Origin: a virus
Virus record (IMG/VR): IMGVR_UViG_3300032213_002091
Span: 25,041 to 89,040 of that record
Length of the DNA stretch: 64,000 bases
Direction: 5' to 3' (one strand)
Shown here in pieces: positions 57,163 through 63,976 of this stretch. Within the stretch, counting starts at the first letter, position 1; every line of letters begins with the position of its first letter. A model generated the notes under the pieces. It worked only from the letters and a program-made list of their open reading frames with translations. It ran no database searches and was not told the DNA's origin. Made by a program: the position numbers and the translations under genes.

Positions 57163-57290
57163 CTAACAAACAACTGTATACTCTTTGTGGCGTGATTACT
57201 TTGTCTGCAGCGTATATTACGAACAGCACATTTCTGAGTGTGTTTGCGTTTTTGTGGTTCGTTTCTTCACTAGTTAGTAAAAATGACTAA
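57159..57290 (+). CDS. small membrane protein (43 aa)
   Basis: GTG 57159 overlaps the previous TGA. Two short hydrophobic helices (LCGVITLSAAYITN, FLSVFAFLWFVSSLV). Overlaps the next ATG by 8 nt. No recognised family; AT-rich again, marking the end of the GC-rich patch. Confidence 0.45.
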   Translation: MTNKQLYTLCGVITLSAAYITNSTFLSVFAFLWFVSSLVSKND

Positions 57291-57639
57291 TTCAACCACG
57301 GGTAAAACTTTCATTGTCACGAAGGTCTACGACGAGGACTGCGATGTTTGCAAACACATGAGCAAACATGATCGAGCAGTGTACGAAGGTTTTTCGGAAG
57401 TTGCTTATCAGGAAGTTAACCTGAATGACGTAATCAACCACGACAACGACTTTACGAAACTCCGTTTGTACCAGTGCCTTGAGCGCTATGCGCTTAACAA
57501 CGACTACACGATCGACCTTCCTGTTTACGTGTATTTAACGAAACAGGGGAAGTACGTGGGACACCACATCGGTTCAGCAACTGTTGTCGAACTTCGTGAA
57601 AAAACAAAAGAAATCCTCGAAGACTGTTTACCAGAGTAA
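57283..57639 (+). CDS. thioredoxin-like protein
   Basis: 118 aa. An N-terminal CxxC (DEDCDVCKHM, residues about 19-28) after the first strand and a cis-Pro-type IDLPVYVYL followed by GKYVGHHIG match the thioredoxin/glutaredoxin fold. Could reduce RNR or other phage enzymes; the NrdA in the window has its own glutaredoxin domain. Confidence 0.75.
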   Translation: MTNSTTGKTFIVTKVYDEDCDVCKHMSKHDRAVYEGFSEVAYQEVNLNDVINHDNDFTKLRLYQCLERYALNNDYTIDLPVYVYLTKQGKYVGHHIGSATVVELREKTKEILEDCLPE

Positions 57640-57673: not shown

Positions 57674-58297
57674 ATGTACCACATTCTTTACAACTCTTTT
57701 GAAGAAAGACCGGGTGGGAGAGACTATATCGGTGCCCATAGCACTGATAACTTGAACGACGGGTACTTGGGTTCTTTCTCGGACCCAACTTTCGAACCTA
57801 CTGCTAAAATCATCATTTCTTTTCACCCTGACAGAGAATCTCTGATGAGGGCAGAAATGCACCTCCAGCGACTACTCAAGGTTGTAGAAGATCCCCAATA
57901 TGCAAACCGTGCTTACCAAACCTCGTCAGGTTTTTCAACTCAGGGGTTAAAACACTTAAGTGGGTGGAAATGGAGTGAAGAAGCGAAAGAGAGGCGAAGG
58001 GGAGAAGGAAACCCCATGTTTGGGAAGTCTCGCGAAAGGAGTCTTGACAGCTCCCTTGCCTTAGAAACCAAACAGAAAATGCGGGAAAAGAAGTTGGGTG
58101 AAAACAACCCAATGTATGGCAGGTCGGGTGAGTTGAGTCCAACTTACGGCAGAGTGAAGTCAAAGGCGGAAATAGAATCTCGTCGTGGTAAAATGAAGAA
58201 AAAACGATGGTTTGTAAACCCTGATGGGGAAACTAAAATGTTTGACACACAACCTCAGGGCGAATGGCGTCCTGGACGCCTTTGGGAGGAAGACTGA
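57674..58297 (+). CDS. GIY-YIG-like homing endonuclease with NUMOD3 repeats
   Basis: 207 aa. YIGAHSTDNLNDGYLGSF near the start is the phage GIY-YIG-type nuclease segment (seg-like); the second half has NUMOD3-type repeats (GEGNPMFGKS, GENNPMYGRSGELSPTYGRV) that bind DNA. A free-standing mobile gene next to speD, with TATAGT (57666-57671) 3 nt before its ATG. Its end overlaps an alternative start of speD. Confidence 0.75.
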   Translation: MYHILYNSFEERPGGRDYIGAHSTDNLNDGYLGSFSDPTFEPTAKIIISFHPDRESLMRAEMHLQRLLKVVEDPQYANRAYQTSSGFSTQGLKHLSGWKWSEEAKERRRGEGNPMFGKSRERSLDSSLALETKQKMREKKLGENNPMYGRSGELSPTYGRVKSKAEIESRRGKMKKKRWFVNPDGETKMFDTQPQGEWRPGRLWEED

Positions 58298-59805: not shown

Positions 59806-60447
59806 GTGAACATTTTCGCTGTAAACAACGACCCTCGCCTCGCCGCCAAAGACCTACCCGACAAACTCATAGTGAAAATGCCCACGGAGTCGCTTCAACT
59901 GCTGACCCCATGGGCTTTCAACACGCATGGGGTTAAAATCGAAAAGCCGGGGCAAAAAGAACTCTTTGAATCCGATAAAAAATACTACGGCATCAAAGGA
60001 TTCGCTCACCATCCCTGTGCAAAGTGGCTCTACGAAAGTCCCGCGAACGTTCATTGGTTGCTTGAACATGCTTTTGGCATGGCCGACGAGTATTGGCAGC
60101 GTTATGACAAATACCACGGAACTCTACACGGACTAAACCAAATCAGAACTCTGGTGTACACCAATCACAACAAAGATTACTCCCGAGACCACACCGAGTT
60201 TGTCCAAGCAATGCCCGAGGAGTTCAAAGTTCCTGACGACCCTGTAACTGCATACCGCAACTACGTCAACGGTTACAAAGGTTACGCCGAGTGGCGTTAC
60301 AGTGAGAAACCAGACTGGTGGGATGAAACAAAGCACGAACCTGTGCGCAAACAGTATCTCGCCGAGCGAGAAGAAAAACGCCTGAAACGTAAGAATGACA
60401 AGTATCCGCGAGTACCGGCAACCCTACAAAGTGAACGGGAAATTTGA
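59806..60447 (+). CDS. conserved phage protein, sometimes annotated as DNA glycosylase-like
   Basis: 213 aa from GTG 59806. NIFAVNNDPRLAAKDLPDKL, VKMPTESLQLL and HHPCAKWLYESPANVHWLLE match a phage family that begins NIF-x-DP...DKHVVKM and continues HPC-x-W; its function is not settled. The basic C-terminus overlaps nrdB by 53 nt. I recall glycosylase-type annotations but do not rely on them. Confidence 0.6.
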   Translation: MNIFAVNNDPRLAAKDLPDKLIVKMPTESLQLLTPWAFNTHGVKIEKPGQKELFESDKKYYGIKGFAHHPCAKWLYESPANVHWLLEHAFGMADEYWQRYDKYHGTLHGLNQIRTLVYTNHNKDYSRDHTEFVQAMPEEFKVPDDPVTAYRNYVNGYKGYAEWRYSEKPDWWDETKHEPVRKQYLAEREEKRLKRKNDKYPRVPATLQSEREI

Positions 60448-61372
60448 ATTCCCCGAGTTTTTCGAAGCCTACCACAAGGCTCAATCGTCTCAATGGCGCC
60501 CTCAAGAGGCTTCCTTTGAGAGTGACATTCGCGACTGGCAAAACGCAAGCCAGGACGAACGGGAAATCGTGGGTGGTATCCTCCGAGGATTTACCCAACT
60601 TGAGTGCCATGTTAGCGATTACTGGTCAAACATTCCAGCATGGTTCCCCAAACACGAGGTTGCTGCAGTCGCAAGAGCTTTCGCTCTTTCGGAAATTGTT
60701 CATGCTGAGGCGTACAATCTGCTATCCGACACTCTTGGGTTAGATGAGTTTGAAGCATTCCTTGGCGACCCAATCGCCCAACAAAAGATCGGATACTTCC
60801 TTGAAAATCGAGGAGTTAAGGAGTCTCTTGCTGTGTTCAGCGGTGCTGGGGAAGGTGTTTCTCTATTCAGTTCTTTTGCTGTTCTTCTCTCCCTTAACCT
60901 TACTGGGCGTTTCAAGGGAATCGCTCAAATCATTTCTTGGTCGGCTCTTGATGAGCAGCAACATTCAGAAACCGGAATAGCCCTGTTCAACCAGTTGGTG
61001 AAAGAAGAGGGCCTGGGTGAAATCGAGGAATACAACATCGTTCGCGGTTTCGATGAAGTTGTGAAGAACGAGCTGGTTTTTCTGGACAACATCTTCAAAG
61101 GCCGAAAGCTCAGCACCATCGACAAATACGACGTTGAGAACTACCTTTATTACCGCGCAAACGACCGGCTCATGCGTTTGAACATTGGCAAAAGATACAC
61201 CTACGATGAAGCTGCCGCCACGCGAATCAAGGAGTGGTTTCACCCGATCATGGAAGGTGCGACCAGCACAGACTTCTTCGCCCAAGCCAAAGATGGAAGC
61301 AACTATGTTTCCAAACCCACTCAAGATTTCATGGGTGTTAACCTCAAGACGCTAGACCTGAACCTCGTATGA
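60395..61372 (+). CDS. nrdB: class I ribonucleotide reductase small subunit
   Basis: 325 aa. Iron/radical site EIVHAEAY gives E-x-x-H with Tyr four residues after the His, as in E. coli Y122; second ligand pair SALDEQQHSETG. Supplies the radical for NrdA. The start ATG 60395 overlaps the previous gene; upstream in-frame alternatives are worse. Stop overlaps nrdA (ATGA). Confidence 0.93.
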   Translation: MTSIREYRQPYKVNGKFEFPEFFEAYHKAQSSQWRPQEASFESDIRDWQNASQDEREIVGGILRGFTQLECHVSDYWSNIPAWFPKHEVAAVARAFALSEIVHAEAYNLLSDTLGLDEFEAFLGDPIAQQKIGYFLENRGVKESLAVFSGAGEGVSLFSSFAVLLSLNLTGRFKGIAQIISWSALDEQQHSETGIALFNQLVKEEGLGEIEEYNIVRGFDEVVKNELVFLDNIFKGRKLSTIDKYDVENYLYYRANDRLMRLNIGKRYTYDEAAATRIKEWFHPIMEGATSTDFFAQAKDGSNYVSKPTQDFMGVNLKTLDLNLV

Positions 61373-63297
61373 CCGAACCAATCGCCCCCAAGTGGCTTTC
61401 CAACGAAGGAATGCACACTTTATCCGCAGGCTATTTGCTGCCTGGGGAAACTCCCCGTGCGATGTTTCAACGGGTTTCCCGTGCAGCGTCCGTAATTAAC
61501 GAAGACGAAACCCTTTATGACGACCTTTTTACTTGCCTTTGGAATGGGTGGCTGGGTCTGGCTTCTCCCGTCGCTGCTAATTTTGGGACCTCACGAGCCC
61601 TTCCCATATCTTGCTACTCTGTACACCCTAGCGATTCTGTTAGCAGTATTTACTCACATCTCAAAGAAGTCGCGCAGCTGAGCAAAAACGGTGGCGGTGT
61701 TGGGGTTTATTTTGGCGATGTACGCCCTGCTGGCGCTCCTATTACAGGTGGTGGAAAGTCTACAGGGATAGTTCCCTGGGCGCAGCAGTACGACCTCTGC
61801 GCTCGAGTTGTATCGCAGGGCGGAGTTCGTCGAGGATCATTCGCAATCTACCTCCCGATTGATCACCCCGACGTTCCCGAACTGCTTCGATCTAAGGATC
61901 ACACGAAGGGAGATCCTCGAAAGTTTATCGACTCAAACGTGGCCTTAACAATCACGGATGAGTGGGTTGAATCGATGATCGCCGGTGACAATGAGAAACA
62001 AGAACTCTTCGGAGAAGTTCTGAAGACAAGACTGATCTCTGGTTCTCCCTACTTGGTTTTCATTGACAACGCTAATCGGCAAAACCCGGAGTGCTACACT
62101 GAGCGTGGCCTCTCCGTGAAAACCTCAAATCTTTGCTCAGAAATCTTCCTTCACACCGATGAGTATCATTCGTTCGTCTGCGTCCTCAGCAGCCTCAATC
62201 TTAGTCGGTACGACGAGTTTAGTGATTGGAAATCTCCTACTACTGGACGTACGGTCCCCGAACTCGCGATTCATCTCCTCGATGCAGTCGTTTCGGAATT
62301 CATTCGCAAGGCAAAAGACAAAGTTGGACTCGGTCGCTCCGTTCGCTTCGCTGAGAAAAGCCGGGCACTAGGTCTTGGCACAATGGGCCTTCACACACTG
62401 TACCAGAAACGTGGATTACCTTTCAGCTCGCCTGGCGCTCGTGAACTCAACATCGAAACGCATAAGTGGATTCGAGAGCGAGCTGAAGTTGCCTCACGAG
62501 AACTGGCACAGAAGTTTGGGGAGCCCGAATGGTGCGTGGGGTCCGGTAGACGCCATACTCATCTTATTGCTGTTGCTCCTACTCGGACCAATAGTGTTAT
62601 TAGTGGAGCGTTTAGCCAAGGTATTGAGCCAATCGATTCAAACTATTTTGTTGCGAAACAAGCCAAAGGAACTTACGTTCGAAAGAACCCTGTTCTAGAA
62701 AAGCTTCTTTGTGAACGCGGAGTCAGCGAAGGGATTTGGGAGCAGATTCTGACAGCAAAGGGGAGTGTTCAGGACCTTACCGTTCTGAGTGACGAGGAGA
62801 AAGAAATCTTCAAAACAGCTCGAGAAATTGACCAGTTTGAACTGGTGAAGCAAGCAGCTGATCGTCAACCGTTTATCTGCCAAGGGCAAAGTTTGAATCT
62901 GTTTGTAGACCCGGAATCTGACGCCGCATATATCACTCGCCTTCACCTTTCTGCCTGGAAAATGGGACTGAAATCCCTGTACTACCTAAAGTCAAGTTCT
63001 TTGCTAACGAATAAAAAGGTGGTGCCAGCGCTGGTGGTTACAAAAGAAGGTTGCCCGTGGTGCGTCAAACTGAAAGACGAACTTCAGAAGAGAAACATTG
63101 TTTTCGAGGAAATCTCAAAACAAGAGGCTCAAGATAGAGGATATTGGAACCCTGAATGGCAGACAGTTCCCCAGCTTTGGCTATACAAGAAGCACATTGG
63201 CGGCTATACTGACTTCATGGCTCACACCGAAAAAGCCGAAATTCCTCAAGAAACTGGGACAACAAACTATGCTGAATGCACTTCCTGCGAAGCCTAA
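61369..63297 (+). CDS. nrdA: ribonucleotide reductase large subunit with nested glutaredoxin domain
   Basis: 642 aa. Catalytic N254, C256 and E258 (SNLCSEIF), redox pair C82 (PISCYS) and C271 (FVCVLSSLNLS), APTRTNSVISGAFSQGIEP late motif. No N-terminal ATP-cone, so allosteric activity control is probably absent. Residues about 552-625 form a glutaredoxin domain (TKEGCPWCVKL, TVPQLWLYKKHIGGYTDF) placed before the C-terminal AECTSCEA tail that normally carries the swinging-arm cysteines. The main body is shorter than usual class Ia NrdA. Confidence 0.92.
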   Translation: MTEPIAPKWLSNEGMHTLSAGYLLPGETPRAMFQRVSRAASVINEDETLYDDLFTCLWNGWLGLASPVAANFGTSRALPISCYSVHPSDSVSSIYSHLKEVAQLSKNGGGVGVYFGDVRPAGAPITGGGKSTGIVPWAQQYDLCARVVSQGGVRRGSFAIYLPIDHPDVPELLRSKDHTKGDPRKFIDSNVALTITDEWVESMIAGDNEKQELFGEVLKTRLISGSPYLVFIDNANRQNPECYTERGLSVKTSNLCSEIFLHTDEYHSFVCVLSSLNLSRYDEFSDWKSPTTGRTVPELAIHLLDAVVSEFIRKAKDKVGLGRSVRFAEKSRALGLGTMGLHTLYQKRGLPFSSPGARELNIETHKWIRERAEVASRELAQKFGEPEWCVGSGRRHTHLIAVAPTRTNSVISGAFSQGIEPIDSNYFVAKQAKGTYVRKNPVLEKLLCERGVSEGIWEQILTAKGSVQDLTVLSDEEKEIFKTAREIDQFELVKQAADRQPFICQGQSLNLFVDPESDAAYITRLHLSAWKMGLKSLYYLKSSSLLTNKKVVPALVVTKEGCPWCVKLKDELQKRNIVFEEISKQEAQDRGYWNPEWQTVPQLWLYKKHIGGYTDFMAHTEKAEIPQETGTTNYAECTSCEA

Positions 63298-63298
63298 G

Positions 63299-63976
63299 AT
63301 GACACGTCGTCGCAACAAAAAATACCCAAGACTGACGCCCGAGCAGCAGAAACTTGTGTCGGAACACACTTGGATCGCAGGCAGACTCGCCTACGGCGCA
63401 AAGTGTTTAACGGGGGGTCACACGGGTTCACTTACGCGGGAAGATCTTGAGTCGGTGGCAAAATTCGCGTTGTGCGTTGCCGCAACCCGTTACCGCTCCG
63501 ATATGGATGTTAAGTATAGCACTTACGCATGGAACACTGCTAGGGGTTACATTCAACACGCCCTCCGAGATTACTCTCGCATGGTACGGACACCGCGCTG
63601 GATTGCCAATTATCGAAACAAAGTGTCCGACCTCGTGAAAGAGGGCAAGACCTACAAGGAAATTGCCGATATTTTGGGCCTTGACGAGAGCAGAGTTCTC
63701 AACTGCGAGATGTCCGAGAACAATTACCACGTGTCTTACGATAGCTCGCCCGAGGACTGGAGCACTCCCGAGTTCGTCTACAACTTTGAAGAGCACAAGG
63801 CAACGTTGTTAAGCCCAAACCTCATTCACGAGATCCGCGCTTTGACGGACGCTGAGATGGTGATGCTGCTAAAGTACGTCGAGGGTGAGCCCATGAGTGA
63901 CGAGGAGAAGGAATACGCCGCAGAAAAATTCTTTGAACTTCAGGCGATTGCACATGGACTCCGAGAAGAACTTTGA
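63299..63976 (+). CDS. sigma70-family RNA polymerase sigma factor (second, divergent)
   Basis: 225 aa from ATG 63299 (1 nt after the nrdA TAA). Sigma region 2-like: LTREDLESVAKFALCVAATR and DVKYSTYAWNTARGYIQHAL; region 3/4-like: RTPRWIANYRNKVSDLVKEG, TYKEIADILGLDESRVL (HTH). Clearly different in sequence from the first sigma factor. A helical C-terminal domain (residues 160-225) is extra. Possible late or middle-phase sigma. Confidence 0.75.
   Translation: MTRRRNKKYPRLTPEQQKLVSEHTWIAGRLAYGAKCLTGGHTGSLTREDLESVAKFALCVAATRYRSDMDVKYSTYAWNTARGYIQHALRDYSRMVRTPRWIANYRNKVSDLVKEGKTYKEIADILGLDESRVLNCEMSENNYHVSYDSSPEDWSTPEFVYNFEEHKATLLSPNLIHEIRALTDAEMVMLLKYVEGEPMSDEEKEYAAEKFFELQAIAHGLREEL

What the first reader, a model, noticed from the sequence alone, without database searches (positions are those of the whole stretch)
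61369..63297. Glutaredoxin domain inserted between the catalytic barrel and the C-terminal cysteine tail of NrdA
A CPWC glutaredoxin domain at about residues 552-625 is followed by AECTSCEA, the expected swinging-tail cysteines. The reductase would carry its own reductant next to the tail that shuttles electrons. The ATP-cone is absent, so activity may also be unregulated by dATP.
Basis: partly seen in the sequence, partly recalled or inferred. Interest (0 to 1): 0.7.

Follow-up and report, generated by a model that had tools for sequence, protein, structure and literature searches.

The report
Phage ribonucleotide reductase with built-in glutaredoxin
A cyanobacterial-type virus carries a DNA-precursor enzyme that has its own electron-supplying protein spliced into its flexible tail, just before the two cysteines that pass electrons to the active site; the layout recurs in other phages and arose at least twice.

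Summary
ORF 61369-63297 (642 aa) is a class I RNR catalytic subunit (NrdA; core about 7-544), then a dithiol glutaredoxin (552-622, C562-P-W-C565), then the terminal redox tail (C637-x-x-C640). It is not an artefact: full-length relatives occur in isolated cyanophages (S-TIM5 group, S-CBWM1) and many IMG/VR contigs. Grx-less relatives end in the same [DE]CxxCE[AGS] tail, so the Grx lies inside the tail rather than at its end. Over 38 inserts from two lineages, the only invariant residues are CPxC, one Leu, VPQ, GG and the two tail cysteines.

The insertion arose at least twice: a tree uniting all Grx-bearing NrdAs is rejected (AU p 2e-70), and the two main lineages pair with different NrdBs (Glu versus Asp first metal ligand). 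In 7 of 7 complete phage genomes tested, the fused Grx was the only Grx. Most likely it is a GSH-driven reductant acting in cis on the tail; no assay exists.

Grx::RNR fusions are known: a 2018 survey counted grx::nrdA in two viruses. I therefore call this a new variant of a known kind.

The parts
60395..61372 (+). nrdB, radical-generating subunit (325 aa); its stop overlaps the nrdA start (ATGA)
   Evidence: Pfam Ribonuc_red_sm E 4e-47; best PDB matches 6cwo to 6cwq, which PMC8463856 names class Id, E 8e-34; metal ligands E70, E100, H103, E153, E187, H190 and Y107; overlap read
61369..63297 (+). nrdA-Grx gene, 642 aa
61387..63000 (+). NrdA catalytic core, aa 7-544 (class Id type, no ATP-cone)
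   Evidence: NCBIfam TIGR02510 over aa 7-544; Foldseek best hit 6dqw, F. johnsoniae class Id alpha, E 2e-54
61612..61614 (+). Cys82, active-site disulfide partner (C225 in recalled E. coli numbering)
   Evidence: invariant in 40 of 40 aligned NrdAs
62134..62136 (+). Cys256, thiyl-radical cysteine in N254-L-C256-S-E258
   Evidence: invariant in 40 of 40; role from established RNR knowledge
62179..62181 (+). Cys271, second active-site disulfide cysteine
   Evidence: nearly invariant (90% or more of 40)
62980..62985 (+). Tyr538-Tyr539, radical-transfer pair near the end of the barrel
   Evidence: invariant in 40 of 40; diagnostic of class I in PMC6370689
62998..63021 (+). Flexible linker 1, aa 544-551
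   Evidence: pLDDT under 50
63022..63234 (+). Glutaredoxin domain, aa 552-622
   Evidence: Pfam PF00462; confident fold; Foldseek hits to Grx1 and Grx3
63052..63063 (+). CPWC, Grx active-site dithiol C562/C565
   Evidence: C, P and C invariant in 38 of 38 inserts
63163..63171 (+). T599-V-P601, Grx cis-Pro / GSH-site motif
   Evidence: V-P-Q invariant in 38 of 38, T in 90% or more
63199..63204 (+). G611-G612, Grx GSH-site motif
   Evidence: invariant in 38 of 38
63235..63276 (+). Flexible linker 2, aa 623-636
   Evidence: low pLDDT; variable in length and sequence
63277..63288 (+). C637-T-S-C640, C-terminal redox tail pair
   Evidence: invariant in 38 of 38; same terminal motif in Grx-less relatives
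63299..63976 (+). Sigma-factor-like ORF starting just after the nrdA stop; listed as neighbour, not part of the enzyme
   Evidence: PHROG RNA polymerase sigma factor, E 2e-14; start read

Best explanation
This is a phage class I (class Id-type) RNR catalytic subunit with a dithiol glutaredoxin embedded in its swinging tail. In each turnover the active-site disulfide (C82-C271) is reduced by the tail pair (C637/C640). The tail disulfide is then attacked by C562 of the Grx on the same chain (or on the partner chain of the dimer), resolved by C565, and the Grx disulfide is reduced by glutathione. Electrons then come from the host GSH pool with no separate redoxin to recruit, which would suit a phage bringing a foreign RNR into a cell. 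Shown here: architecture, two independent origins, strict conservation of both cysteine pairs, and the fused Grx being the only Grx in 7 of 7 complete genomes. Inferred: every electron-transfer step, the cis action and GSH as the donor.
For: Grx fold and motifs. Across 38 inserts of both main lineages the only invariant positions are CPxC, one Leu, VPQ, GG and the two tail Cys, while both linkers vary. All 146 Grx-bearing C-termini with a stop codon in the locus keep the terminal Cys pair (includes duplicates: the 147 Grx-bearing rows hold 91 distinct C-termini); in the non-redundant set 48 of 48. At least two independent insertions at the same place: NrdA-core trees, AU test p 2e-70, and different NrdB types, Glu first ligand in 21 of 21 versus Asp in 24 of 24. 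In 7 of 7 complete fused phage genomes the only PF00462 match lies inside NrdA; in 7 of 13 non-fused genomes a Grx sits next to or is fused with RNR genes. dN/dS of the Grx 0.08-0.22 in the three comparisons where it could be computed. A CPWC Grx fused to NrdB drives its RNR with GSH in Facklamia ignava (PMC6187632, passages read).
Against: No biochemical data. The relay geometry cannot be read from the model because both linkers have pLDDT under 50. Two fused phages, S-TIM5 and S-TIM54, also encode a thioredoxin, so Grx need not be the sole reductant. Host glutathione reductase is not universal in cyanobacteria (PMC10295655, passage read), and the host of this virus is unknown. G000 is an 89 kb linear record that may be incomplete, so 'only Grx' cannot be claimed for this virus itself.
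Confidence: 0.8

Rival explanations
1. The Grx acts mainly in trans, on the tail of the other alpha subunit or as a general phage/host Grx, and fusion serves stoichiometry and co-expression rather than an intramolecular relay.
For: In F. ignava the Grx fused to NrdB reduces NrdA in trans within the complex (PMC6187632). Phages with similar RNRs instead have Grx as a neighbouring gene or fused to either end of NrdB, so the exact location is not essential.
Against: The same position inside the tail was reached at least twice, with the tail cysteines kept at the tip.
Confidence: 0.3
2. The Grx delivers electrons directly to the active site and the tail pair is a relic.
For: Grx-family proteins reduce many disulfides; the Grx is tethered close to the barrel exit (about 12 residues).
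Against: Tail cysteines are invariant in 38 of 38 and 48 of 48; [quoted passage not shown]
Confidence: 0.03
3. The Grx domain is reduced by thioredoxin reductase (NrdH-like) or by host ferredoxin/thioredoxin rather than by GSH.
For: NrdH-redoxins are Grx-like but use thioredoxin reductase (PMC6187632); some cyanobacteria lack glutathione reductase (PMC10295655).
Against: Profile best matches are GSH-using Grx3 and Grx1; TVP and GG conserved.
Confidence: 0.12
4. Assembly, frame or annotation artefact.
For: None found.
Against: Isolated phages and many independent contigs share the layout; Grx under purifying selection.
Confidence: 0.01

Closest known systems
NrdA of cyanophage S-TIM5 (NC_019516; also S-TIM54, S-TIM61, S-TIM66)
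   Same: About 65% identical over 99% of the length, same core-Grx-tail layout; called NrdAi / subclass Id in PMC6370689
   Different: Grx is CPYC and shorter; annotated only as NrdA or RNR large subunit
Facklamia ignava Grx::ATP-cone::NrdB (PMC6187632)
   Same: CPWC Grx covalently joined to a class I (Id) RNR; GSH-driven turnover demonstrated
   Different: Grx is at the N-terminus of the radical subunit, with an ATP-cone; here it is inside the tail of the catalytic subunit
[quoted passage not shown]
   Same: Grx joined to NrdA in viruses; probably the same kind
   Different: Main text gives neither names nor topology; Table S1 could not be read, so identity with this layout is an inference
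F. johnsoniae class Id alpha (6DQW) and A. ureae alpha (6DQX)
   Same: Closest solved fold of the core, about 40% identity, no ATP-cone
   Different: No Grx
Separate grx next to nrdA in Agrobacterium phage Atu_ph07, Sinorhizobium phage Phosso and Salicola phage SCTP-2
   Same: Phage RNR with dedicated Grx
   Different: Grx is its own ORF downstream; the NrdA tail is uninterrupted
C48C1-like marine phages, Delftia phage PhiW-14, Acinetobacter phages nACB2 and SH-Ab 15599
   Same: Grx between barrel and terminal CxxC of NrdA
   Different: Independent insertion(s); NrdB has an Asp first ligand

Membership tests
Class I RNR catalytic subunit (NrdA) | Barrel with three catalytic cysteines, Tyr-Tyr pair, C-terminal cysteine pair | tested here: met
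Class I RNR catalytic subunit (NrdA) | Adjacent gene for an NrdB radical subunit | tested here: met
Class Id RNR | Alpha closest to class Id alpha and lacking an ATP-cone | tested here: met
Class Id RNR | Tyr/Glu pairing in beta (PMC8463856) | tested here: met
   E70 and Y107 in P0002
Class Id RNR | Second-sphere Lys71 and Thr191 of F. johnsoniae beta | tested here: not met
   Ser74 and Ser183 here; no Lys in 21 of 21 lineage-A NrdBs. I therefore write 'class Id-type', not class Id
Class Id RNR | Mn(III)/Mn(IV) cofactor without tyrosyl radical | not testable with these tools
   needs EPR
Dithiol glutaredoxin | Grx fold with CPxC, TVP and GG | tested here: met
Dithiol glutaredoxin | GSH-dependent disulfide reductase activity | not testable with these tools
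   needs HED and RNR assays
Grx::RNR fusion (PMC6187632 kind) | Grx and an RNR subunit in one polypeptide | tested here: met
Grx::RNR fusion (PMC6187632 kind) | Fused Grx serves as the RNR reductant | not testable with these tools
   shown only for F. ignava in the literature seen here

The most novel reading that the evidence does not exclude
Phages have at least twice converted the class I RNR catalytic subunit into a self-reducing enzyme by placing a Grx inside the swinging tail. One chain then holds the whole dithiol relay from glutathione to the active site (Grx pair, tail pair, active-site pair), with no redoxin partner to recruit, and this is the only Grx those phages carry.
Probability: 0.65. 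Interest if true: 0.6.

Novelty: new variant of a known kind. Interest (0 to 1): 0.5.

Why it matters
How RNRs are re-reduced, and how the tail meets its redoxin and then the active site, is hard to observe because tail and redoxin meet only briefly. An enzyme with the redoxin embedded in the tail holds the relay in one chain, so the intermediate complexes could be trapped structurally and intra- versus inter-subunit electron transfer tested directly. The repeated origin suggests that redoxin supply limits phage dNTP synthesis, or that host redoxins fit a foreign class I RNR poorly; PMC6370689 states that the hosts of S-TIM5-like phages carry class II RNRs.

Tried and rejected
Artefact: rejected (isolates, many contigs). 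End-to-end gene fusion by read-through: rejected, because the tail motif comes after the Grx and matches the tail of Grx-less NrdAs. Single origin of the insertion: rejected by the AU test (15 Grx rows against 25; I had seen the 130-row tree before choosing the rows). Whether the Delftia/Acinetobacter insertion is a third event separate from the C48C1 one stays open.

Origin of the inserted Grx: inconclusive. The 40-row tree puts the Phosso/Atu_ph07/MA9V-1 NrdAs next to the cyanophage lineage (99/97), but the 130-row quick tree prefers the L090/L249/L180/L268 group (88). In the Grx tree the inserted cyanophage Grx groups with the free Grx of Phosso and Atu_ph07 (95/81, with a long-branch cyanobacterial row in between). 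The cyanobacterial Grx rows listed best appear to be mostly not dithiol CPxC Grx (the one printed row shows no CPxC), so they say little about a host origin.

Host: no psbA/psbD match in the record (possibly a fragment). Bacterial carriers: of 80 loci kept of 550 relatives in genome contigs, 79 were parsed and 3 had the insert (L185 to L187). I take these to be phage contigs from their neighbours (for L185 and L187; L186 has the same C-terminus as L185, its neighbours were not examined). The other 470 relatives were not fetched. Prevalence was not estimated: searches used Grx-bearing queries, so fractions are biased.

Full report
What is there. The window lies in G000, an 89 kb linear virus record. 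ORF 61369-63297 encodes 642 aa. hmmscan finds the RNR all-alpha domain, the RNR barrel and a Glutaredoxin domain at 556-610; no ATP-cone is reported in it or in the upstream NrdB. The nrdB stop overlaps the nrdA start, and a sigma-like ORF starts just after the nrdA stop. A high-light-inducible protein, an AdoMet decarboxylase and a pyrimidine-dimer glycosylase lie upstream. The nearest annotated relatives are Synechococcus phages, so the virus looks like a cyanophage, but its host is not known.

Fold. AlphaFold2 with 40 homologues (mean pLDDT 88.5) gives a confident barrel and a confident Grx (about residues 552-622) joined by a disordered linker (544-551), with a disordered end (628-642). 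The core is closest to class Id alpha 6DQW and 6DQX. The Grx-plus-tail piece matches Grx1 and Grx3, and its profile hits E. coli Grx3 at E 3e-18.

Internal insertion, not an end fusion. Grx-less relatives run from the Tyr-Tyr pair through a short tail to [DE]CxxCE[AGS]. In Grx-bearing ones the Grx sits between the two and the terminal motif stays. Of 297 NrdA C-termini parsed from 313 loci, 147 carry a Grx (91 distinct strings). All 146 of these with a stop codon in the locus keep the cysteine pair; the remaining one is cut by the contig end. In the non-redundant set (130 rows) 48 of 48 Grx rows and 79 of 82 others end in CxxC. In 38 aligned inserts the invariant positions are C, P, C, one L, V, P, Q, G, G and the two tail cysteines. 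This is the pattern expected if the two dithiols work together while the linkers are free to drift.

At least two origins. On the NrdA-core tree of 130 rows the Grx rows need three changes and strongly supported branches force two. A careful tree of 40 rows gives the same in its 200 bootstrap trees (5%-95% range 3-3). Forcing the 15 Grx rows together costs 234 log units (AU p 2e-70). The lineages also differ in NrdB: lineage A (cyanophages, with this window) has a Glu first ligand in 21 of 21 loci with an NrdB row; lineages B (C48C1-like, 21 of 21) and C (Delftia/Acinetobacter phages, 3 of 3) have Asp. The inserted Grx domains of lineages A and B form separate groups. The C48C1-type C-terminus matched 529 relatives in IMG/VR; 80 were kept and all 80 carry the Grx. 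That query itself held a Grx, so this is not a prevalence.

Genomic logic. In 20 phage records searched for PF00462, the seven with the insert (S-TIM5, S-TIM54, S-CBWM1, C48C1, PhiW-14, nACB2, SH-Ab 15599) have exactly one match each, inside NrdA. Of the 13 without the insert, seven have a Grx at the RNR genes: a neighbouring ORF in Atu_ph07, Phosso, SCTP-2 and Vibrio phage Gary; the NrdB N-terminus in Melnitz-3; the NrdB C-terminus in CcrBL9 and Lacusarx. One has a weak match elsewhere (AD45-P1) and five have none. Seven of the 20 records have a thioredoxin match, including S-TIM5 and S-TIM54. In the window's own record there is one Grx match, in NrdA, and no thioredoxin match. So phages with this kind of RNR tie a Grx to it in several ways, which favours a role as its reductant.

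Selection. Against L006, L007 and L008 the Grx dN/dS is 0.08, 0.22 and 0.08. The other three pairs could not be computed: no synonymous change for L004, saturation for L009 and L012.

Mechanism. Best reading: glutathione reduces the Grx dithiol, the Grx reduces the tail dithiol, and the tail reduces the active-site disulfide, all on one chain or across the dimer. The last step is general class I knowledge (PMC4390871 and PMC6187632, passages read). The middle step has a direct precedent in F. ignava Grx::NrdB, also CPWC, with kcat 1.4 per second with GSH (PMC6187632, passages read). For the present layout every transfer step is inferred. Cis and trans cannot be told apart from sequence.

ATP-cone. 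NrdB here also lacks it, so simple dATP shut-off through a cone is not expected; other regulation is untested.

Novelty. PMC6187632 (section read) reports Grx fusions to all RNR components, including grx::nrdA in two viruses. The main text gives no names or topology and supplements could not be opened. PMC9669993, a family-wide analysis of RNR insertions and extensions, holds no occurrence of 'glutaredoxin', 'redoxin' or 'Grx', and PMC9531940 none of 'glutaredoxin' or 'redoxin'. PMC6370689 notes fused Grx only for beta subunits and calls the S-TIM5 RNR subclass Id (passages read). Searches listed no paper whose title or abstract describes a Grx inside the NrdA tail or its repeated origin; most of the listed papers were not opened. 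The library covers open-licence PMC papers only, so this is no proof of absence from print. I file it as a new variant of a known kind.

Noticed in passing
60395-61372 (NrdB) and lineage-A NrdBs: Tyr/Glu pairing as in class Id, but the F. johnsoniae class Id residues Lys71 and Thr191 are Ser74 and Ser183 here; no Lys in 21 of 21 lineage-A NrdBs, whereas Atu_ph07 and Phosso keep Lys and Thr. The cofactor type is therefore uncertain.
   Followed up: partly
61369-about 61820 against L004, and 61369-about 62090 against L006: The 5' part of nrdA differs strongly (54-79% identity, ungapped) from near relatives whose remaining gene and downstream sequence are 92-100% identical: a recombination mosaic with break points inside nrdA.
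   Followed up: partly
L185 and L186: In the Grx-bearing NrdA of L185 the Cys271 equivalent reads as Tyr (FVYVLSS), which would remove an active-site disulfide partner; a sequencing error is possible. L186 is probably the same contig (same C-terminus) and was not examined there.
   Followed up: no
L088, L172 (Pfam); L037, L293, L295 (long ORFs): NrdA genes of S-CBWM1 and nACB2 carry an intein inside the barrel in addition to the Grx; three other Grx-bearing NrdA ORFs are unusually long (817-997 aa) and may as well.
   Followed up: partly
57283-57639 (+): Small ORF with a CDVC motif that looks thioredoxin-like by eye, but no Pfam or significant PHROG match.
   Followed up: partly
L176 3470-4678; L182 3326-4609; L183 3607-5007: Grx fused to the N-terminus (Melnitz-3) or to the C-terminus (CcrBL9, Lacusarx) of phage NrdB; the Melnitz-3 ORF is annotated as hypothetical.
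   Followed up: partly
57674-58297 (+): ORF with NUMOD3 motifs, probably a homing-endonuclease-type gene upstream of the nrd cluster.
   Followed up: no
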